Below the pieces are notes generated by a model. It made no database searches, was not told the origin of the DNA, and worked only from the letters and a program-made list of their open reading frames with translations. DNA of 11,925 nt from Physocladia obscura (Eukaryota; Chytridiomycota; Chytridiomycetes; Chytridiales; Chytriomycetaceae), in assembly GCA_027596945.1 (NCBI GenBank), contig JADGJH010001103.1:1-11925 (forward strand), in the 5' to 3' direction. How positions within the stretch are numbered: the first letter of the stretch is position 1; each line of letters opens with the position of its first letter. Shown in pieces: positions 1,273 through 11,925 of this stretch. Position numbers and translations under genes: made by a program.

Positions 1273-3110
1273 ATGGGACATGGAATTCTGAGGATTGTTG
1301 CGGCGGTTGTCATTTGTTTTGTTACCAGAACCTTTGCAAAGCCTGCGGATCCAGCATTAAACAAAATTCTTGTCGTACTTAACTCTTTGGACCAACAAAC
1401 GGAGTTTTCTCACTTCCTGGATTCACTTGAAAGTAAGTGACAGAAAATAAAATAATGCAAAGTCAGCTGGATTTTTTACTGATCAATGACAACCTGTTAC
1501 TATTTGCATGCGTAATTCGTTGGTCTCGTACTGCATATATATATTTTTTTTGTTGCATGAAATCGCAGAACGTGGCTTTGATTTAACAATCAAGGCTGCA
1601 TCGGACAATTCTGCGAGTCTCGTTGCATGGGAAGAATTAGCTTTCAACAATCTTTTGCTATTGGCAGACGCAACGTCAGGTGAAGCATAAGACCAATTAT
1701 TATCATTCCTCTTTTCGTTGCTGTCATTTCTTGCTGATCCCGATTTTTATTTTTTATTTCTCAGGCGCCTTATTCACACCTGCAAAAGTCATTGATTTCG
1801 TAAACCGTGGCGGAAATGTTTTGATTGCCGCTTCGTCGCAAGTTTCAGAGACGATCCGCGATATTTCCATTGAACTATCTGCCGATTTTGATGAAAAAGG
1901 CAACAGCGTTTTTGACTCTTTTAATTCGCCCGTTAAAGGAAAATCGGATATCATCTCTGCGACAAAGTTTGCTGGTAAGATTATATTATTTTCGCAATGC
2001 TGTTTTTTGATGCGATTTTTAATGTGGCTATTATTTTAGGAGAGCACATTATTATTCCCCCAACTCTTCAAGGACAAATTTCGCGAGGCGAATTGCCTCT
2101 TCTCTTTAGAGGAGTTGGACACCGCCTTACTGGAAAAAACCCGCTAATTATGCCAGTTCTTGTAGGAAACCCCACATCTTTTTCATACTTGGATTCGACG
2201 AAAGGAAACGCTGCTCCATTGACATCGGGATCGCTTGTTGGAAGTTCATTGGTTCTTATTAGCGCCTTTCAGGCAAGAAATAATGCCAGAGTTGTCTTTA
2301 GTGGAAGTGTTGATTTGTTCAAAAATGAATTTGTGGAAGCAATAATTGGGTAATTTTGCATTTTTTACTATAAATCTTCTGATTTTTTCTTTTTTTCTTT
2401 TCTTCTTTTCTTCGATTATTGTAGTGACAAAACGACGGCCAATGGTAGGTTTGCGAATGAGCTTACGAAATGGGCATTTCAGGAAAAAGATGTGTTAAAA
2501 GTTGTCAAAACGTTCCACCACCGTTTGCTCGAAAACCAACAGCACGGATCCTATAGAATTAAAGAAGAATTGGTATTTTTTACTTAGTTTAAGTTTTTCT
2601 AGTTAAATGAAAAAATTTGAACTCAGCTCTACGAAATCGAATTATCAGCTTATTATGATGACGCATGGCATCCATATGCCAGTAGCTCGCCAATTCAGTT
2701 TACTGCCACCATGCTTGACCCATATATTCGCCAGAATATGACTTTGTCATCGAAAGTGACCGACACGACGAGCATATACACGCTACCGTTCCTGACGCCA
2801 GACGTATATGGTGTGTTTACGTTCCAAGTTGAACACAAAAGACGAGAAGGTTATAGTTGGATCGATGAGAAGGAAGTTGTGAGCATTCATCCGTTCAGAC
2901 ATGGTTAGCTGTATATGTATCCCTCTTCTCGTCGATGTTGCTTTACTCACTTTATAATCTATTTTGTTTTAAGACGAATATCCACGATTTTTGAGCGCTG
3001 CTTTCCCGTACTACGCGAACGTGTTTAGCATTATGGCGGGATTTGTAGTTTTGAGTGGCGTTGTGTTATATCACAAAGATTTTGCGGTCGCGAAAGTCAA
3101 GACCAATTAA
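1273..3110 (+). CDS. DDOST: Oligosaccharyltransferase 48 kDa subunit (OST48/WBP1), seven exons
   Basis: Structural subunit of the ER oligosaccharyltransferase complex, which transfers the lipid-linked glycan to Asn in nascent proteins. Exons by GT-AG borders and frame: 1273-1432, 1569-1679, 1765-1974, 2040-2349, 2425-2572, 2627-2903, 2974-3110; they total 1353 nt, giving 450 residues, close to the usual length of about 455. Seen: a signal peptide (residues 1-22, ending TRTFA before KPADP), an N-terminal segment with ILVVLNSL, the GGNVLIAASS stretch, the family block LPDVYGVF-like (here LTPDVYGVFTFQVEH), the YPYYA-like FPYYANVFS, one C-terminal membrane helix (about 421-438) and a short cytosolic tail ending KVKTN. 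That tail fits the KxKxx ER-retrieval signal known in this subunit. All splice phases join in frame and no stop or frameshift is seen, so the gene looks functional. Start chosen because the signal peptide follows directly. Confidence 0.95.
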
Positions 3111-3127: not shown

Positions 3128-3602
3128 GTGGTCGATGAAATGATACGAAGCGTTTTGAATTTGCAAATCAGTTTAAGTTTTACAATCAGCAATAATAGTG
3201 GCAATAGCGGCAACGGTGGTGGGCGCAACTACAGCGGTGATAACAGTAATCAAGCACGCTTACAAAGTCGTACCGAATACGGGGGATCGAGAAACGTGGG
3301 GCGCGCTGACAATAATTACCGAGAAAACAATACCAATTACCGCGACAATAGCAACAGCTATAACGGCGCAGGGGGCAGTAAATGGGCGCAGGCTGCTAAC
3401 GCAGTCGAAACAGGACGTATCAATCGCTACGACGGATGGGAGAATGTTAACAGCGAGGAGGAAAATTATCGTATTCCCCACATTTTAGCCAATCAACATC
3501 AACGATGATGAAGGCTGGCTGTCACACAAGACTCGAAACCTACAGAATAAATCTGCAGATAAAACTCGTCGTGCACTCCAAAAAGCACGTGATGCTGACT
3601 GA
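3128..3602 (+). pseudogene. Asn/Gly-rich protein with SNAP-25/29-like SNARE helix start, cut off at the mobile element
   Basis: Begins 18 bp after the OST48 stop. The frame from 3128 to 3445 encodes a low-complexity Asn/Gly/Tyr/Ser-rich region (for example NNSGNSGNGGG) ending in RINRYDGWEN. A 43-bp GT-AG interval (3446-3488, gttaac to ttttag) would restore the frame into 3489-3599, which contains DDEGWLSHKTRNLQNKSADK and then TRRALQKARDAD. This second part resembles the start of the Qb helix in SNAP-25/SNAP-29/Sec9 proteins, where an STRR-type motif opens the SNARE core; Asn/Gly-rich N-termini are known in Sec9-like members. The frame meets TGA at 3600-3602, 8 bp before the element's left repeat, whereas family members continue for well over 150 residues. 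I do not see the remainder beyond the element. Start codon (3128 or 3140) is uncertain. Alternative: a low-complexity ORF with chance SNARE resemblance. Confidence 0.4.
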
Positions 3603-3609
3603 GATTGTA

Positions 3610-3674
3610 CTGCGGCAAGTGACGAATTAACTCAACTTTGAATGGGGTGGGGATTGTTCACTCAATGATAGTGA
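3610..3674. repeat. Left outer terminal inverted repeat unit (L1)
   Basis: About 65 bp that match 11248-11311 in inverted orientation with few mismatches and a one-base length difference. Shared blocks include GGCAAGTGAC, ACTCAACTTTGAATGG and GATTGTTCACTCAATGATAG. The outward match fades beyond 3610 (ctgcgg versus ctgagg), so that is taken as the element's edge. Confidence 0.85.
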
Positions 3675-3732
3675 GGAATAGTGTGCTTGATTTGAGTGAG
3701 AAGAGTCGCTGAAAGTGGATGAAATGAGTATT

Positions 3733-3781
3733 GTGTCAACTCCACTTGATTTGTTGTGAGATTGTTCACTCAATTATAGTG
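3733..3781. repeat. Left inner terminal unit (L2)
   Basis: A second, more diverged unit about 98 bp inward from L1, sharing GATTGTTCACTCAATTATAG with the inverted right inner unit at 11141-11195. It has ATTATAG where both outer units have ATGATAG, so inner pairs with inner and outer with outer. Confidence 0.75.
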
Positions 3782-3876
3782 TTGAATAAATGTGGGAGTT
3801 GTCGCTAAGAGTCAACTGTATTAAACTGTATTCTCGTTTGAGCGAAAAAGTCCAAATCTAATAGAATTTTTAAAAA

Positions 3877-4180
3877 ATGACGAGAAAGCCAACCAACACA
3901 ATCACAAACTACTACGCCGGCGCACCCACAACTACAACCAACTCCTCATCATCGTCGTCGTTTTCTGAGATGAAGAAGAAGGCGAAAACAGGTGATGGTT
4001 TGTCTGAAAAGCATACAAATTAAAATCAAAGCACACTCAGACTCTCGCGCGTCTTCCTCATCAATGTCATCTACTTCTTCATCTTCTTCTTCGCCGCTCG
4101 CTGTCGATGGCGTGATATGGCGCTTTCTCTTGTTTCATGGCGTTAAGAGACTCTGGACAAAAGTGCTGCTCGTAGAATGA
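3877..4180 (+). CDS. Ser-rich ORF, possible two-exon gene; strand uncertain
   Basis: An ATG at 3877, after an A-rich leader, opens a frame rich in Thr, Ser and Lys that starts MTRKPTNTITNYYAGAPTTT. A GT-AG interval at 3992-4040 (49 bp, more AT-rich than its flanks) would join it to a second frame with a long Ser run and then a Trp/Phe-containing end (GVIWRFLLFHGVKR), stopping at 4178-4180. I do not recognise the product. The same DNA read on the minus strand also gives a plausible acidic protein, because runs of TCA/TCG/TCT codons are Asp/Glu codons in reverse, and a T-rich candidate intron lies there too. Strand choice here rests mainly on the ATG position near the element's left end. Both could be spurious. 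Confidence 0.25.
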
Positions 4181-4400
4181 ATCCTCGGTACGACTAGCTG
4201 AAGTAGCCCCAGGGTCTGTGCTGCCTGCCGCCTGGAAACGCAGTTTCAACCCGCGATTTATCGCACCGTCTGAATCCTGCGTTTGGGGTACCACCTTGTG
4301 TGTTGAAGGCGCAGTAGTTAGACAAGAGCGATGTCACTTGTCACGAGATGTTTTTGCACAAGAGCGCAAGTTACTTCCTGGACTAACGGACCAACTCAAA
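4042..4400. other. GC-richer patch inside the AT-rich element
   Basis: Base composition changes clearly here: CpG-containing strings such as ctcgcgcg, cccgcgattt and tgcgtttggggtacc are frequent, while the rest of the element is strongly AT-rich with few CpGs. A minus-strand frame at 4079-4294 stays open for 71 codons with protein-like composition but no motif I know. Possible explanations are a captured host fragment, a nested insertion or a conserved structural RNA. No tRNA cloverleaf or Pol III boxes were convincing. Confidence 0.4.
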
Positions 4401-4410
4401 AGACTAAGCC

Positions 4411-4449
4411 TATTATTATTATTATTTTTTATTATTTTTATTATTTTTT
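4411..4449. repeat. ATT-type low-complexity tract
   Basis: A run built from TATTATTATT and T-rich variants. It marks the edge between the GC-richer patch and the AT-rich DNA ahead of the next gene. The stretch from 4450 to 4688 holds no credible coding region. Confidence 0.8.
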
Positions 4450-4650
4450 CATTAAAATATTTCTGTTCCAACCTTTTTTATTGCACCTACGAAATTCTTG
4501 TCCGATGCCATGATGAGAGTGATGTCGATGAATGAGGGGTGTTATATCAGTCTATGGATACATATCTATTTGCTTTATTACAGAATAACGATTATGTGCT
4601 TTGTTGGGAATAAAACGGAATGTCAGAGAACATTTTGGAACTTTTTTGAC

Positions 4651-4657
4651 TATAAAA
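4651..4657 (+). promoter_or_regulatory. TATA-like box before the 4689 gene
   Basis: TATAAAA lies 31 bp before the ATG at 4689, a spacing that would allow a very short leader. In AT-rich DNA this is weak evidence alone. Confidence 0.3.
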
Positions 4658-4688
4658 AAATTGACAATTTTTCAAGTGGCAACAAAAA

Positions 4689-5497
4689 ATGTCCACTCGT
4701 GAGATTAAGATTGTCGGCGATTGGATACTTCGATGCAAGAACCACCCTACCGAACGCATTCATGATATGATGTATGACATGTTGCATGCTAACAGCCGTT
4801 GTCTCACGCTGCTGGCCAAAGCTATTGTCAAGGTGCAAGGTAGCTAGTCCTCGGTTTCAAAAGAACTCCAGGGTTCAACTGATGCCTTGGAAGCATACGA
4901 AGTTTTGGATGATGAAGACTTGCCAATTTCATTGGTTGTATGACCTCCCAAAGACAAACACTTACAAGTGGAGCAACTGCTGACATTCATTAGGCCAACT
5001 GCAGTCACCGCAAAGACTGACGTCAAACCAAGAAGCTACGACCGACTCTCTGTTGATGGACTGTCAGATTATGTCATTGACTGCGTCAAGAAAATCGAAT
5101 TCAACCACTTTAAGTCTCTCTCCATACATGAACTTGGCTGATGCTCTTCAAGCTCTAATGGTCAACCTTCAGCACTATGAGGGAAAGCGTGTTTGTACCA
5201 AAGAAGAATGTTATCCTGTTATTCATGAGCGCACTGGCATCGCCAAAAGTACCTACTGCAGATTATCCTCGGTTCTTTCACACTTCGTTAACATACAATC
5301 AAATCAAGCAGAATCAATCAGCCATACGCAGCTGGTTCAGCAAGCAAGATATTACTCTACCTGCAACTGATTTCACCTCAATGCGGTACTGGCAGCAAAG
5401 TTTGGATGCTTCGGATGGCGCCAGTCATTTCAACGAAATGAGTATGGACTGCAATGACGATTTGTCCAGCCAGAATTCTGATTCAGAAGAGTAAATA
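4689..5497 (+). pseudogene. Unrecognised element protein with possible helix-turn-helix, broken
   Basis: The ATG at 4689 opens MSTREIKIVGDWILRCKNHP and a frame interrupted by TAG (4845-4847) and TGA (4941-4943), closing at TGA 5139-5141. The reading moves to the +1 frame around 5137 (DALQALMVNLQHYEGK, then the block at 5221-5265 with ERTGIAKSTYCRL) and to the third frame around 5260 (YPRFFHTSLTYNQIKQNQ onward), ending in an acidic NSDSEE tail before TAA at 5495-5497. Intact length would be near 268 residues. The TGIAKSTYCRL block has the spacing of a recognition-type helix-turn-helix (TGI-x-x-ST-x-x-R-L), suggesting DNA binding. I know no family match. As the leftmost large gene of the element it could be a regulator, a terminus-binding protein or a transposase. 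The last two are guesses. Confidence 0.55.
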
Positions 5498-5761
5498 ATG
5501 TATGTGGTTTATTTGTTTTTTTTGTCTGGCTAAAAAAATATGTCTATGCAGGGAGACATTTCTATAATTTTTTTAAATCAAGATTTCAGTAATGCTTTTT
5601 GTCTATCCACGGAGATAACCTTTTGTTTATTGTTTGTATATGTTGTGTACTACCCATGGAGACAACATCTCTTCATCTGTGAATATATTTATGTTTTTAA
5701 TTGGTCGAATAAAAAAAACTGAATTAAATTCGAAAACTTATTTTATTTTATAATACTAAAC
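5495..5761. other. Intergenic spacer with three diverged GGAGA repeats
   Basis: AT-rich spacer between two element genes. It holds three related strings: gtctatgcagggagacattt (from 5542), gtctatccacggagataacc (from 5601) and gtactacccatggagacaac (from 5647). The GGAGA cores are 59 and 47 bp apart. No open frame of note lies here; the final 20 bases form the promoter-like box of the next gene. Confidence 0.4.
5746..5755 (+). promoter_or_regulatory. Promoter-like TTTTATAATA box before the polymerase gene
   Basis: TTTTATAATA ends 6 bp before the ATG at 5762. The same ten bases occur 8 bp before the start of the minus-strand gene at the other end of the element (10949-10958). Such a box hard against the start codon suggests an element-specific promoter. 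Confidence 0.45.
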
Positions 5762-5986
5762 ATGTTCTCGTTGGAAAGTGTACATCCTTTCTACCAAAGT
5801 ATACAGCTATTTGAACCAAATAACTTTGGCTTGACTTACAAAGGAATCTTTATCACTATCAAGAAAAGAAGTAGCACCGTTTTAAACCAGTTCAAGCTTC
5901 CACATAACAAAAAACAACATAACATGTTGCAATCACATATTGCCAATCTCATTCGGAGCAATAAAGCTTCAATTATTGGAAACTAA
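5762..5986 (+). pseudogene. N-terminal segment leading into the polymerase gene, or a separate small ORF
   Basis: An ATG directly behind the TTTTATAATA box opens 74 codons (MFSLESVHPFYQSIQLFEPN at the start, LIRSNKASIIGN at the end). It overlaps in a different frame the open polymerase frame, which becomes readable from 5965. Because the promoter-like box sits here and no other ATG has one, I think this was the true N-terminus of the polymerase protein before a frameshift between about 5940 and 5986. It has no motif I recognise, so an independent small protein remains possible. Confidence 0.45.
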
Positions 5987-8064
5987 TTCTAAAGTTGGAC
6001 AATTCTTTCATCAGGAAAACTGACAAGACAATGAAGCAACTTCAATTTGGGGGCATGAACATCATTCATAATATTTTGAAGAGAAGGAGGCCAGATTCAC
6101 CTGAATCATCAAGAAAGGAGCAACAAATGGACACTTCATCAAAGAGAAAGAGACCCAATATTCCATTTGATTCTCAAAAAGAAAGACACATTGACTATTC
6201 ATTGTACTATCTTCCAATTCTCTTCTCACAGAGGATAATTGTGACTTATGAATTCAAGTATGTGATTCATTATGGAGATTACGAAGATAGCAAGACAGGA
6301 ATCATTTGAGATATTCCTGACTATTTGATTGAGCAACACCTTGATACTCTGACAAAAGAGTATGCTGCAAGGAAGACATATGACTGTGAGATTTTAGAGA
6401 TTGATTATATTACTCAACCAGTTCCACATCAGCAAGTAGCTTTATTAGAACAGAGAATGTTTGGGATGGTTTTAAACTACCACCATTTAAACCTTGCACC
6501 AAACTTTACTAATGAAAACATTTGTGTTTATCAACATTTAATAAACACATATTCAAAACACATTAAAGGAGTAACTTTTGATGGTTTAAAGGGTATCTTT
6601 GAAGAAGGCGAGATTGATACTGGAGTAAAAACAAATCAAATAGTTTGATTCTGTGAAAAGTATGGAATCAGCTTATATGCAATGGATTTAGAGTTTGAAA
6701 TTTTCTGCCGACACATTCCTAAAGTCAGAAATCACCATGTCCCTTGCCTGATTTACATTGTTGCCAATAACTACATGTATCTTGTATTAGAAGAAGAGCT
6801 TAGAAGGAGTATTTTTGCCTCTGAGAGAACAAAGGGCACCAGCAATTCAAGAGTTTTCAAGAGCAAGGAGAAGCAGGTAAATACTTTTGACAGAACAATC
6901 AAAATCATACTAAATGCTTCATATGAAACTTTTAGTCAACTTGAAAACTGTAATGTTGTTTATACAAATAGAGCCAACCTTTCAGACTTTGTTGTATATT
7001 TAGCACAGACTGAACAAAAGTTATACAAGACAAGAGGTAACAGCAGGCATATAGTTCAAATTGAATATAAGAACAACGTCATTATTGAAGTCAACAAGCA
7101 CTATCAAGAGTCATTATCAGTATCAAAAGCATTAACAATTCCATTTAGAAACCAAAACCTCATTAGTCTGGTCTTAGAGGCCTTCCAAATATACAAGGGT
7201 GATGACATTATAGAGAGCACATTCAATTGAGTGACTCAATCAGTATTCTTCAACTGTGTCAAGGGTGCAATTGTTGATACATTTTATGAACCATCAGAAT
7301 CGGCCGATTTAAAGAGTTTCAATATTCAAAAATGCCATATGGCATATTTGACCATCAAGAATGAAATGCCATGGTCTGTTTTCAGTATTTTTGATGAAGT
7401 CAAACCATACTCTGGTAAACTAAGAACTGGATTCTATTATGTTGAAACTGAGAACACGTTTCCACTAAGAGGCTCTCGTTGGCATTCAGCACCCATACTA
7501 CAATATTGTCAAATGATTGCCGTGCCACTCAAGATTGTATATGAAATCATTTCAAGTAAGACTCTCAAAGCAGATTACTTTAATGATTTTGTAAAGAGGA
7601 TATATGACAAGAGTGGCAATAATGCAAAGCTGATGATTAACTGTTTTGTAAGATGTTTGAACAAAAGAAGTGATAAAAAGCAGACAGATAGGTTTACAAT
7701 GAGTTTGAATGATGCAGTTTGATACTTTTTCTCAAACAAAAATCAGTGTATTCATGCATCTCACAGACCCTAAATTTGTACCATATTTCAATTAAAAATG
7801 ACTCTCTTAAGTGTTTCAACACAATTCCTATATACTGGCAGGTGATTGATAATGGCAATATGATGTTGCATCAACTAGCAATGAAGATGGGTGGGAGAAT
7901 AGTTCGATTAAAGACTGATTGCATTGTAGTTGATGATGGCAATGATGTTGAGTGTAAACCAGGTATTGGTAATTATCGGCTCGAAGCATTACCAAAAGAG
8001 TACAAAGTATCTGAGCCATTCAAGAGTACATATGCATTTCATCTTGAAAATAAAAACTGGATTC
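5965..8064 (+). pseudogene. Family-B DNA polymerase region (exonuclease and palm) of a polymerase-helicase-HNH fusion, broken
   Basis: Would synthesise element DNA. One frame runs from 5965 to about 7730 broken only by four TGA codons (6307, 6646, 7228, 7720), then shifts to a second frame. Exonuclease motif I is MDLE at 6682-6693 with both acidic residues kept; an exo II-like stretch (VVYTNRANLSDF) and a later block ending SLSVSKALTIPF follow. Palm motif A is SFNIQKC, with Asn at 7321 where the catalytic Asp is expected. After it come PWSVFSIFDEV and a YYVETENTFPLRG block, typical of a divergent polB group in eukaryotic elements. Motif B is KLMINCFVRC (Lys 7627, Asn 7639; Arg 7651 where Gly is usual). 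Motif C is KTDCIVV with Asp at 7917. Frame and spacing lead straight into the helicase. The type is closest to PF03175-like polymerases; inactive in this copy. Confidence 0.75.
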
Positions 8065-9140
8065 CAACAGAAAATAGATTAGAGCGTCGGTTATTAACTG
8101 GAATGGCAGGTACGGGGAAATTGACCAAAGTCAGAGAAACCATTAAAAAATTGGAGCCAGGTTCATTTGTGTTGCTGGCAAGTACAAATAAGGCAGCAAG
8201 GTTGATAAATGGTCAAACAGTCCACCATTTTTTTCATATTGACAACAATGACAAGTGTAACTTGAAGGAAGCAGGTAAAGGCAGCCAGCAGATATCAGTA
8301 CATTTTCATTGATGAAGTTGGTATGCTGAGAGCAGCAATTTATGAAATCTTATATTGTGTGAAACTACAAACAAAAGTCAAGTTTGTATTAGTTGGTAAC
8401 TATAAACATTTGGGAGGAGTAGAGAAAAACAATAGAAATACAATTACCTCAGTACCCTAGCATTAAAAGAACTTGTCAATTCCAGTATAACAGAGCTCTT
8501 GATTAATCATCGTTCAGACAACTCAGTGACAGTGCTATTTGACATTGTGCACACATTGAATCCAAGTGACTTTGACAATAAGCACTTGTATACTCAAGTA
8601 AATCTAGCATACACTCATAACAAGAGAAAACAAATCAATGAAATCATGATGTAGAGAGATAAACTGAAGAAAAAGAAAAAGATTAGAGTAGAAGCAAATA
8701 ACAATGACCCAAACTCACAAGATGTTTTATTGATGGTTTGCACTCCAGTTATTTTGAATAGAAACTACAAGAAACTCGGACTTGCCAATAGTGCAACATT
8801 TGTAGTCAAAAAGATTGAGCCACTGTTGTTGCTGGAAGATACAGTAACCAAGGACAAGATTGAGATTACTATAGAACAATTTTGGTTATATTTCTGGGTC
8901 AACTATTGTTTGTCAGTCCATCGAGTGCAGGGTGATTCAATAAAAGAGCCTTTCACAATCCATGAATCGAGTAAAATGGCAAAGGATATGCAATACACGG
9001 CAATTAGTCAGACCACTAAAAAAGAATACATTAATGTGGTTGACAATGGTATGAAACACAAAGTAACAAAAGAGACTGATTTTGACAGGATGAAACAGAA
9101 GAGAGAGCGAGATTTAAAAGATGAACTCAAACGAAAGTAG
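8065..9140 (+). pseudogene. SF1 (Pif1/RecD-like) DNA helicase region of the fusion, broken
   Basis: Would unwind DNA for the attached polymerase. Walker A reads GMAGTGKLTKV, with Leu at 8121 where Ser or Thr should follow the Lys. Walker B is IFIDEVGML (Asp-Glu at 8311-8316), but one frame away, so a frameshift lies near 8285; a second lies between about 8400 and 8460. Motif III has VGNYKHL where GD-x-x-QLPP is usual (Asn at 8398). Near the C-terminus SVHRVQGD (8913-8936) matches the conserved HR-x-QG motif, and YTAISQTTKKEYI matches motif VI with Gln at 9009 in place of the Arg finger. In-frame TAG codons lie at 8652 and 9138. Continuous frame geometry with the polymerase upstream and HNH downstream indicates a former single protein. 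The motif set identifies SF1 securely; assignment to Pif1 over RecD is less sure. Confidence 0.75.
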
Positions 9141-9413
9141 ATAGAGGCTGTTCAAGTAATCAACTACATTATTCAAAAGGGCTGTTCTGATGACTTTAGT
9201 TTGAAGCATACTTTGGTAAAGAGACAAGAGCTGTTGGAGCATCTTGGTATTCCTGATGGGGTAGTACCAAGAGGATATGAGATAGACCACATCAAATCAC
9301 GATGCCAACATACCACAGATGATGACTTCAAAAACATTAATGCTCATTGGAATCTGCGACTGATTTCGAGAAGAGAAAACAACGAGTTGGGACAAAAATT
9401 GCAATCATTGTAA
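9141..9413 (+). pseudogene. HNH nuclease-like C-terminal tail of the fusion
   Basis: In the same frame as the helicase end, separated by one TAG (9138-9140). A helical linker (VKRQELLEHLGIP) leads to GYEIDHIKSR, a DH pair at 9285-9290, then HWNLRLISRRENNELGQK with Asn at 9351 and a later Asn-Asn pair. The DH...NL...EN-x-x-G/K layout is that of HNH endonucleases, which cut DNA with one metal ion. The stop at 9411-9413 is the natural end. In a transposable element such a domain could nick or cut target DNA or resolve replication ends, but that role is inferred. It is short, about 45 residues of recognisable domain, so a structural zinc-less remnant is also possible. Confidence 0.6.
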
Positions 9414-9460
9414 AAAATGAAGACTTTTGATTGGTCCAAAAATTCCATTTTTGTGGAATT

Positions 9461-9467
9461 TCTATAA
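9461..9467 (+). promoter_or_regulatory. TATA-like box before the RING gene
   Basis: CTATAAAC-type sequence about 30 bp before the ATG at 9496, followed by TTATATTAAAAA directly ahead of the start. The 82-bp gap after the HNH stop suggests that the RING gene had its own promoter. Confidence 0.35.
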
Positions 9468-9495
9468 ACTTAAAATCTTTTGCTTATATTAAAAA

Positions 9496-10320
9496 ATGGA
9501 ATCAATAGTAAACTACTCTGTGAATTTAAAACAATCAGATTTAACCTGTTGTGTCTGTCTTGAAAACATCAATTTTCCAATTATTCAGTGTGCAAATGGG
9601 TCAAATCCACACTTTGTTTGTATCAAATGCCATCATCAATTGGGCCAAAAGTGCCAGCAATGTAAGACTGAATCATTATTTCATAATAAACTATTGCAAG
9701 TTACACTAACACCCTTTTTAGAATCATGCACCAATGAAAATTGTAAAATGCAAGTATAGAAGTGGAATCTCAATGAGCATGTAGAAGACTGTGACTACAA
9801 GAAACACAAGTGTTTCATATGTTAAAGAAAAGTGCTATCAAGAAAAACATTGCAGAGTCACTTTGAATCGAAATGCAAGACTGGAATTATTCAACAAAAC
9901 ATGACATCAATTGAATTCAATGGATGGGATTTAAACAAAGAAGGATTTAAGGTTGAGTTAAATGAAGATTTAAATGAAGGAGGTGTGCTGACAACACACA
10001 ATGCTGTTGTTTTAATTTACAGAAACAAATGTTCAAAATAGGTCATTGCCTCAATCGCACTAATGAAGCTTCCATCGAAGGCAACTATCACAACCATCAA
10101 ATCAATGCCCAATGATGCAATTGTCGAATCAACAGTACACACTACATGTGCTTCAAGTCCGAGTGTGCCTGTTTTCATTGAAGTTGAACAAGCAAACTCA
10201 GTCTTTATCACCACCAAACAAAAAGAATTGAAAAATATAAGGAGTCCAAGTGCTGATGCAATTGGACAGTTTCTTGAGCACATACACATGGCACAAGGTG
10301 TCGAATCAGATGACGATTAA
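9496..10320 (+). pseudogene. SIAH/TRAF-type RING finger and zinc-finger protein (E3 ubiquitin ligase-like), broken
   Basis: A single frame from ATG 9496 to TAA 10318-10320 (274 codons) interrupted by TAG 9757, TAA 9823 and TAG 10039 but with no frameshift. Residues 18-56 form a RING: CCVC, then QCANGSNPHFVCIKCHH, then KCQQCK, giving the C-x2-C...C...H-x2-C-x2-C...C-x2-C order. A second cysteine/histidine set follows (Cys 9727 and 9742, His and Cys near 9790, Cys 9811 and 9820, His and Cys near 9860-9880), as in the SIAH-type zinc finger, and then a C-terminal part of uncertain fold ending in acidic ESDDD. SIAH proteins transfer ubiquitin to substrates bound by their C-terminal domain. Here the protein may have targeted host proteins on behalf of the element. 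The end overlaps the stop of the convergent gene by three bases. Probably captured from a host. Confidence 0.65.
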
Positions 10321-10940
10321 TGTCTCTTTATTTCAACAATCTTCTCTTTGTCGAATTCCTTCTTGAGGTGATGATAGAGTTGCTTTTGAATGGCTGGCTG
10401 ATTGTCATGGAGTTCTTTACAGAGGTTTGTGTTTCCTTTCATTAAATCATGTTTGATTTGCTGGATTCTCTTTTTATTGCCACTGCTGCTCTTTTTTCTT
10501 AGATAATAGACAAGGGTATTGTCAACAAAGAACAACTCACTATCAGTCTCAAAGTACTTGTTACCATTCATTAATTGTTTTATTTTATCCAGTAATGCAT
10601 GTTTTATTTCAATCACAGACAGCTTTTCGAAATCAGGATTATTAGTGTCATTCAATTCCGATTCAAGTCTCTTGACAGTCTCTTCCAATTTGACTATTCG
10701 TTCCTTCATTGACTGGTTAATATTGGAGTTGACCATTTTCATCCATTTGTCAGGCACATCAATAACAAGAGGTTGATTTGAGCCGAAATAAGGTACACCC
10801 ACTTTTGAAAGAGTGGTGTTAATTTTACGTTCTTGTACTTCATAAGTGTGTTCATTACAAAGGTCCTTATAGATTGTTCCAATGGGAATGGTCTTTAAGA
10901 ACCTGTTTCGTACAGTTGTGGATGGAATTGTAACAGTCAT
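10317..10940 (-). CDS. Intact coiled-coil protein of unknown function, 207 residues
   Basis: The only large gene of the element without a stop or frameshift. It starts at ATG 10938-10940, 8 bp behind a TTTTATAATA box, and stops at TAA complementary to 10317-10319, touching the RING gene's stop. The N-terminal third (MTVTIPSTTVRNRFLKTIPI onward) is mixed alpha/beta in composition with SKVGVPYFGSNQPLVIDVP. Residues about 73-100 form a clear amphipathic coiled coil (KERIVKLEETVKRLESEL). The C-terminal half is Lys-rich and basic (YYLRKKSSSGNKKRIQQIK). There is no signal peptide or membrane segment. I recognise no family. A DNA-binding, structural or host-contact role are all open. Its survival amid decayed neighbours may reflect chance, younger age or retained function. 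Confidence 0.65.
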   Translation of the reverse strand: MTVTIPSTTVRNRFLKTIPIGTIYKDLCNEHTYEVQERKINTTLSKVGVPYFGSNQPLVIDVPDKWMKMVNSNINQSMKERIVKLEETVKRLESELNDTNNPDFEKLSVIEIKHALLDKIKQLMNGNKYFETDSELFFVDNTLVYYLRKKSSSGNKKRIQQIKHDLMKGNTNLCKELHDNQPAIQKQLYHHLKKEFDKEKIVEIKRH

Positions 10941-11140
10941 TGTTTTATTATTATAAAAGAAAATAATTTTAAGTAAATACTGTTCAATTGGAAATTAAAA
11001 TAGTCATTGATGTAATGTGTCTATTTTTAGGACAAAAAAACCAGCTGAGCGGACTTTTTCTTAGAGCACAGAAGACACATTTCATTCAAACAAACAACAT
11101 TTCAGCGAAAACACACACATAACTCCATCACAATACCCAT
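10941..11140. other. Right subterminal non-coding region of the element
   Basis: AT-rich leader of the minus-strand gene followed by A/C-rich sequence (acaaacaacattt, aaaacacacacat). No gene seen. It separates the last gene from the right inner repeat unit and mirrors the non-coding gap of about 90 bp after the left inner unit. Confidence 0.5.
10949..10958 (-). promoter_or_regulatory. Promoter-like TTTTATAATA box before the minus-strand gene
   Basis: Read on the minus strand the ten bases are identical to the box at 5746-5755 and lie 8 bp before the start codon. The match at the same distance on the opposite strand supports a shared element promoter. Confidence 0.45.
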
Positions 11141-11195
11141 CACTATAATTGAGTGAACAATCCCCACACAATTCAAAGTTGAGGTGATTCGTCAC
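11141..11195. repeat. Right inner terminal unit (R1)
   Basis: In inverted orientation shares GATTGTTCACTCAATTATAG with the left inner unit at 3733-3781. It also shares the CTCAACTTTGAATT block and a GTGACGAAT edge with the outer units. Its core lies 108 bp inward from that of the outer right unit. Confidence 0.8.
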
Positions 11196-11247
11196 AACAA
11201 TGAATTTTCTTAGTGAACACTCACACTAAAAAAATTTACAATACCCA

Positions 11248-11311
11248 TCACTATCATTGAGTGAACAATCCCACACCATTCAAAGTTGAGTTGATTTGTC
11301 ACTTGCCTCAG
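11248..11311. repeat. Right outer terminal inverted repeat unit (R2)
   Basis: Inverted partner of 3610-3674, with the diagnostic ATGATAG and the terminal CTGAGGCAAGTGAC (read inward on the minus strand). Similarity ends at 11311, taken as the right edge of the element. Confidence 0.85.
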
Positions 11312-11925
11312 AGTAAACTCGAACAATTCAAAATTTTATTAGAGAAGCTCCACAGAGAAAACGGTGCGGGCGTGTGATTGGGGGGGTTGAAGTTGGTTAT
11401 TTTCCGACAGAAATTTAGGTTAATCTGTTTTAAGTATTTCATTGCATTCATACTTGATGAAAGATAAATTCAAAAGGTTTGAGAGAAAAAACAGAAGCTA
11501 ATGCATAGACGTGGCACATGTTTTCTTTTTCGAGTGTCTGAAATTATTATAGTTTCCGATACAGCTTAATTGGTCCACTGAAGATCACGCTCAAACAATT
11601 TATGTCCCAACAAAGTCACAGTCAAATACATCCACGCAATTCCACATCACGTTCGTTGAAAGAAAACTGAAGGATATTCTTAATCAATTCATCAAGCATT
11701 TCCGTCAAAAGTTAAGGTTGCTTTATTTTGTATTGAAAAACAATGCACAAGACTAAAAAAAATAAATGACACAGTCGTTTTAAACACAAAGGATTTCAGA
11801 TTTTCTGTGTTTCAGTTAAACTGATTGTCCAGATTTACGGCCAAAAAAAAAAAAAAAAAAATTAAAAAATAATTCAACCATTGAAAAAAAAAAAAAAAAA
11901 GAAACCAAATGTAACCAGTTAAAAT
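11312..11925. other. Right host flank, mostly non-coding
   Basis: AT-rich DNA with two long A runs (about 11843-11861 and 11884-11900). No continuation of the SNARE-like gene was found. One weak possibility on the plus strand is a last exon at 11553-11756. It has an acceptor-like attattatag, a 67-codon frame beginning FPIQLNWSTED and ending NNAQD, a TAA stop and AATAAA at 11761-11766. The protein is not recognisable and a frame of that length can arise by chance, so it is not called as a gene. Confidence 0.4.

What the first reader, a model, noticed from the sequence alone, without database searches (positions are those of the whole stretch)
3610..11311. Candidate undescribed class of mobile element built on a polymerase-helicase-HNH fusion
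A single reading unit carries a family-B polymerase, an SF1 helicase and an HNH-like tail between inverted termini, together with a SIAH-like RING gene and a coiled-coil gene, in only 7.7 kb and with no capsid, packaging or DDE integrase gene visible. Polintons, Polinton-like viruses, Helitrons and cut-and-paste transposons each lack this gene set as I know them.
Basis: partly seen in the sequence, partly recalled or inferred. Interest (0 to 1): 0.85.

Follow-up and report, generated by a model that had tools for sequence, protein, structure and literature searches.

The report
Capsid-less virus-derived replicon in chytrids
A chytrid fungus carries many copies of a roughly 8-kilobase mobile DNA element that seems to be a virus replication module living on without any detected virus coat genes, its key enzyme being of a type known from small DNA viruses and virus parasites of protists.

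The parts
3596..3800 (+). Left terminal inverted repeat, outer ~65 bases missing; two 19-mer subterminal motifs at 3655 and 3763
11100..11387 (-). Right terminal inverted repeat, ending in a G-run (C-run on the other strand) at 11380-11386; two 19-mer motifs at 11141 and 11249
5046..5493 (+). ORF1 remnant, conserved C-terminal block (83-93% to the C307 copy in three pieces); function unknown, broken here
5762..9410 (+). Broken pPolB-S1H-HNH replicase gene (N-terminal region, OTU-like domain, polymerase palm, SF1 helicase, HNH)
6511..6810 (+). OTU-like region: candidate catalytic Cys codon 6523-6525 kept; candidate His position (6772-6774) reads Tyr here, His in 12 of 12 other fetched copies matched by the search pattern
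7300..7935 (+). Polymerase palm: motif A near 7318-7335 (Asp replaced by Asn in this copy), motif B near 7627-7653, motif C near 7911-7928 (KTD, first Asp of DTD absent)
   Evidence: motif names from established PolB knowledge
8090..9140 (+). SF1 (Pif1/Dda-like) helicase domain; Walker A near 8100-8123, altered after the Lys
9270..9410 (+). HNH-like tail (DH...N...N pattern)
   Evidence: (below Pfam cut-off)
9496..10317 (+). RING/TRAF-type zinc-finger gene (SIAH-like), interrupted by stops here
10320..10940 (-). Convergent coiled-coil gene, open in this copy; gave the most matches of the three genome-wide protein searches

Best explanation
A degenerate copy of a capsid-less, virus-derived replicon family of Chytridiales: TIR - ORF1 region - pPolB-S1H-HNH replicase - RING/TRAF gene - (convergent) coiled-coil gene - TIR, about 7-9 kb. 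Likely cycle: (1) genes are expressed in the nucleus (inferred from the ORF1 intron); (2) the replicase copies a linear DNA form end to end, probably protein-primed from an N-terminal domain that the OTU-like protease then releases, with the C-run tip serving for start and slide-back, and the fused SF1 helicase unwinding ahead (inferred from homologues); (3) linear copies are captured into chromosomes at breaks, perhaps helped by the HNH nuclease, without a fixed target-site duplication (weakly supported); (4) internally deleted copies keeping the TIRs are mobilised in trans. Shown: family, gene set, selection, termini, derivatives, homology of the replicase. Not shown: priming, an extrachromosomal form, the integration step.
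Against: No extrachromosomal form, terminal protein or transcript was seen. The TP domain was not identified. The OTU matches are weak. The intron-like stretch is absent at that junction in 5 of 8 copies read (C307, C1040, C608, C520, window) and unsupported by RNA. The TSD test has only 8 pairs, of old copies, and 3 of 8 show 4-5 base matches against 7 of 56 cross-pair controls, so a short TSD is not excluded. 24 of 76 core matches lack the C-run. Termini within a copy are only 64-89% identical. Absence of capsid genes genome-wide rests on Pfam searches of which two had no positive control. The left part of the element varies, and ten replicase copies have no left end found.
Confidence: 0.66

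Rival explanations
1. Internally deleted polinton-like virus: the copies are defective relics mobilised by full PLVs with capsid genes living in the same hosts.
For: The replicase type is a PLV signature; a PLV integrated in the chytrid Spizellomyces punctatus is published (PMC7805220, passage); some environmental relatives sit on contigs up to 18 kb; ten replicase copies here have no left end found.
Against: The four two-ended replicase copies are 7.1-8.8 kb, the gene order is shared by 14 of 18 stretches, and three genes are under purifying selection. No DJR-MCP, NCLDV capsid or A32 ATPase over cut-off in the genome (65 and 88 without positive control, 66 gave three sub-threshold matches).
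Confidence: 0.16
2. A true transpoviron: a cytoplasmic linear plasmid of a giant virus infecting chytrids, whose copies were caught in the nuclear genome as fossils.
For: Size, TIRs, replicase type, a zinc-finger gene, lack of capsid (published features); best viral fold match is a 999-aa protein, the length given for the largest protein of a clade-A transpoviron in PMC8877843.
Against: Intron-like stretch at a conserved place in ORF1; many copies, several subfamilies and host species; the internal tandem repeat of mimivirus transpovirons is not seen in the window; no NCLDV capsid found (no positive control).
Confidence: 0.1
3. An ordinary TIR transposon with an unrecognised transposase (ORF1 or coiled-coil protein) that captured a viral replicase as cargo.
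For: TIRs with mirrored subterminal motifs and small TIR-only derivatives are typical of such elements; ORF1 and coiled-coil genes have no Pfam function; 3 of 8 pairs have a 4-5 base flank match.
Confidence: 0.07

Closest known systems
Transpovirons (mamavirus/lentille, megavirus vitis, moumouvirus australiensis, pacmanvirus lostcity)
   Same: About 7 kb, TIRs, pPolB-S1H replicase (mimivirus ones), a zinc-finger protein (mimivirus ones), no capsid (PMC8877843, PMC7031253, PMC11788076, PMC11071308: passages)
   Different: Here: many chromosomal copies in a fungus, intron-like stretch in ORF1, C-terminal HNH, RING/TRAF and coiled-coil genes, miniature derivatives; no internal tandem repeat in the window; no giant-virus link seen
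Tlr1-like polinton-like viruses with pPolB-S1H
   Same: Replicase architecture with vOTU, palm lacking the first Asp of motif C, SF1 helicase and, in some, a C-terminal HNH or GIY-YIG (PMC11071308, PMC12721341: passages)
   Different: PLVs are given as 14-40 kb (PMC12220804, abstract start in listing) with capsid genes; none found here
OmPLV of Oxyrrhis marina (Helicase SF1-pPolB)
   Same: Endogenised, multi-copy, fragmented SF1 helicase/pPolB fusion
   Different: Reverse domain order, complete exonuclease, ~25 kb element (PMC12721341, passages)
Polintons/Mavericks
   Same: TIRs and pPolB ancestry
   Different: No RVE integrase or capsid gene found, short body, SF1 helicase fused
Fungal cytoplasmic/mitochondrial linear plasmids
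   Same: Capsid-less protein-primed PolB replicons in fungi
   Different: No SF1 helicase fusion and not nuclear high-copy repeats (recalled)

Membership tests
pPolB-S1H (Tlr1-like helicase) replicase family | PolB palm with motifs A, B and C (first Asp of DTD missing) | tested here: met
pPolB-S1H (Tlr1-like helicase) replicase family | SF1 helicase C-terminal to the palm in one polypeptide | tested here: met
   Open frames of 831-937 aa span palm and helicase; gene models P0001, P0002
pPolB-S1H (Tlr1-like helicase) replicase family | vOTU protease with Cys and His before the palm | tested here: inconclusive
   Candidate His in 12 of 12 and Cys in 8 of 8 other copies matched by the pattern, which allowed only C, Y, R or S at the Cys place; OTU folds match weakly (E 0.14-0.42)
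pPolB-S1H (Tlr1-like helicase) replicase family | Loss of the exonuclease domain | tested here: inconclusive
   No exonuclease motif recognised by eye between OTU and palm, but the model aligns from phi29 residue 3
Transpoviron | About 7 kb with TIRs and no capsid gene | tested here: met
   Four two-ended copies 7.1-8.8 kb; genes mapped; Pfam scans of pieces
Transpoviron | Internal tandem repeat 3' of the helicase (mimivirus transpovirons; absent in pltv) | tested here: not met
   TRF finds none between 4461 and 11846 of the window; other copies not tested
Transpoviron | Episome carried by a giant virus | not testable with these tools
   Only a genome assembly is held; no NCLDV capsid found, without positive control
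Transpoviron | Small transmembrane protein and second core protein | not tested
   No transpoviron protein sequences were fetched and no membrane prediction was run
Polinton-like virus | Double jelly-roll MCP and packaging ATPase | tested here: inconclusive
   None among the genes mapped nor over cut-off in the genome, but searches lacked a positive control
Polinton/Maverick | RVE integrase and capsid genes | tested here: not met
   No integrase or capsid domain in Pfam scans of the genes and of left-part pieces from C365, C184, C853, C16, C307, C1152, C373, C951 and the window; the pieces are partly broken
Polinton/Maverick | Fixed ~6-bp target-site duplication (length recalled) | tested here: inconclusive
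   8 pairs, none longer than 5 bases; copies are old
Helitron | Rep/HUH domain with helicase and no TIRs | tested here: not met
   TIRs present; no Rep domain in Pfam scans; definition recalled
DDE cut-and-paste transposon | Fixed-length target-site duplication | tested here: inconclusive
   8 pairs: best repeat 5,2,2,2,5,4,2,2 against mean 2.3 for 56 cross pairs

The most novel reading that the evidence does not exclude
A self-synthesising, protein-primed nuclear transposon lineage: a virus replicase that shed capsid and integrase, acquired an intron-bearing gene and a ubiquitin-ligase-like partner, and spreads in fungal chromosomes by making linear DNA that inserts without a dedicated integrase.
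Probability: 0.35. Interest if true: 0.82.

Novelty: new variant of a known kind. Interest (0 to 1): 0.6.

Why it matters
If right, it is a chromosomal, capsid-free counterpart of transpovirons in fungi, with enough copies, subfamilies and host species to test how a viral replicon turns into a transposon. It also offers a naturally high-copy system for asking whether pPolB-S1H fusions are active polymerases, and whether linear protein-primed DNA can colonise nuclear genomes without an integrase. A large survey of integrated PLVs searched by capsid gene and left fungi out (PMC10120064, passages), so it would not have seen such elements.
Full report
OBSERVATION. The window is contig C988 of an unnamed 21.76-Mb genome in 1222 contigs. 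A protein record of Physocladia obscura (P0060) is 100% identical to a stretch of contig C1210, whose length (10,086) equals that record's longest contig, so the host is very probably this chytrid (Chytriomycetaceae). The left flank holds an OST48 gene split by short introns (Pfam OST48_N and OST48_MD on separate pieces). The inverted repeats are real, with a 19-mer placed exactly twice in each arm. Comparison with other copies shows that the TIR commonly begins with a C-run and that the window has lost its left tip.

A REPEAT FAMILY. The helicase segment gives 95 matches at 70 places on 68 contigs, the OTU-region segment 78 matches, and the coiled-coil gene more than 150. Copies with both ends on a contig that hold the replicase are C365 (8.70 kb), C184 (8.75), C307 (7.15) and C853 (about 7.6, right tip cut by the contig end). 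The window is 7.8 kb without its left tip. Five more two-ended copies are shortened to 0.53-4.9 kb. Of 18 replicase-bearing stretches mapped, 14 have replicase, RING and, on the other strand, the coiled-coil gene in this order. The other four lack one or both of the last two: C853 (no RING), C897 (no coiled-coil hit), C427 (stretch begins at the contig start) and C520 (neither). The part left of the replicase varies from about 1.5 to 3.9 kb. For ten other replicase copies no convincing left end was found, so longer forms are not excluded.

THE REPLICASE. Twenty-seven database proteins match: one each from Chytriomyces cf. hyalinus (77% identity) and Obelidium mucronatum (63%), one partial from Physocladia, and the rest without an organism name, mostly from metagenome sources. 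Palm motifs are conserved: A (DIxKC or similar), B (KxxxNxxxG) and C (xTD, lacking the first Asp). PMC11071308 (passages) notes the same missing Asp in Tlr1-like helicases and predicts that they are still active. An AlphaFold model of C951 residues 1-772 is matched best among viral models by H6WBE3 (999 aa, unnamed in the table) and then by mavirus DNA polymerase. I take H6WBE3 for a transpoviron helicase because PMC8877843 gives 999 aa as the largest protein of a clade-A transpoviron (passage) and from memory of the accession series; this was not verified. In the PDB the match is phi29 polymerase, far above the next family. OTU proteases appear weakly, but the candidate Cys and His sit where that paper places them, and the His is kept in 12 of 12 other copies matched by my pattern. 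The window has lost the His, and its motif-A Asp reads Asn. In the tree, which is midpoint-rooted, the chytrid proteins and three unnamed ones (P0003-P0005) form one clade (support 100/100) apart from the other environmental sequences (long branches flagged, and one row read through a stop). In the alignment L021, P0002, P0003 and P0004 carry the HNH-like tail at the C-terminus (the P0001 model ends before it), while most of the other group carries a PF01844 HNH between OTU and palm, so the nuclease was gained or moved independently.

OTHER GENES. dN/dS between copies is 0.08-0.25 (replicase parts), 0.13-0.29 (RING) and 0.07-0.21 (coiled coil); 12 of the 28 pairs computed had saturated dS and are left out. 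These three proteins were therefore under selection while the family diverged, and the window copy decayed recently compared with its divergence (inference). The coiled-coil protein has 30 database relatives, chytrid and unnamed, with a conserved N-terminal block and no informative fold match. ORF1 relatives occur in Chytriomyces, Physocladia and Siphonaria. In C1152, C373 and C1210 ORF1 is interrupted at the same place by a 50-52-nt stretch with GT-AG ends, and the Chytriomyces gene model is joined there. Five of the eight copies readable at this junction have no such stretch. If these are spliced introns, the element is transcribed in the nucleus, unlike transpovirons, which replicate in giant-virus factories (passages).

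TERMINI AND INSERTION. Of 76 distinct TIR-core matches in the fetched stretches, 52 have a C-run of 4-10 outside the core and 24 do not by my criterion; A precedes the run in 46 of 52. Left and right TIRs of one copy are 64-89% identical (seven copies, mean 76%) against a mean of 71% between copies. Eight pairs show no consistent duplication (5,2,2,2,5,4,2,2 bases against a cross-pair mean of 2.3; 3 of 8 at four or more against 7 of 56). This fits capture of linear DNA at breaks but does not prove it, since the copies are old.

CAPSID AND INTEGRASE. None of the mapped genes is a capsid or ATPase gene, and Pfam scans of the genes and of pieces from the variable left parts show no capsid, integrase or transposase domain. 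Genome searches with DJR-like_dom and Capsid_NCLDV found nothing, though no control genome rang either; Pox_A32 gave three sub-threshold matches of 25-42 positions.

COMPARISON. The replicase belongs to the pPolB-S1H family known in PLVs and transpovirons (PMC11071308; also PMC3671162 and PMC12721341, passages). The element works most like a transpoviron, but differs in chromosomal life, intron-like ORF1, HNH and accessory genes, and its giant-virus link is untestable here, so I do not file it as a transpoviron. A PLV in a chytrid is published for Spizellomyces (PMC7805220, passage). My searches list no paper that I could recognise as describing this element; papers outside the held library and Repbase were not seen.

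Noticed in passing
window 1274-3109: Host gene with short introns for the OST48/WBP1 subunit of oligosaccharyltransferase, upstream of the insertion.
   Followed up: partly
window 3177-3600: Gly/Asn/Arg-rich open stretch followed by sequence abutting the truncated left end; the element may sit in or beside a second host gene.
   Followed up: no
L014 (C431) 340-870 and L053 (C1148) 550-1180: Miniature two-ended derivatives of 0.53 and 0.63 kb, MITE-like.
   Followed up: partly
L010 1257-1691: An open stretch in the left part of the C184 copy that by eye resembles an OTU-type protease; Pfam finds nothing.
   Followed up: partly
L030 7592-8999: A reverse-transcriptase-like stretch (non-LTR retrotransposon by eye) beside the C13 copy.
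   Followed up: no
Proteins P0006-P0024: Most environmental relatives carry a PF01844 HNH between OTU and palm, a different place from the chytrid C-terminal HNH; IMG/VR scans recovered none of them.
   Followed up: partly
L013 (C2) 3306-8222: A 4.9-kb two-ended copy whose two tips match the C638 tip at 77% and 93%, perhaps a recombinant or two abutting copies.
   Followed up: no
L038 (C225) and L063 (C632): Two copies share nearly the same left flank, so they are duplicates or inserted in the same repeat.
   Followed up: no
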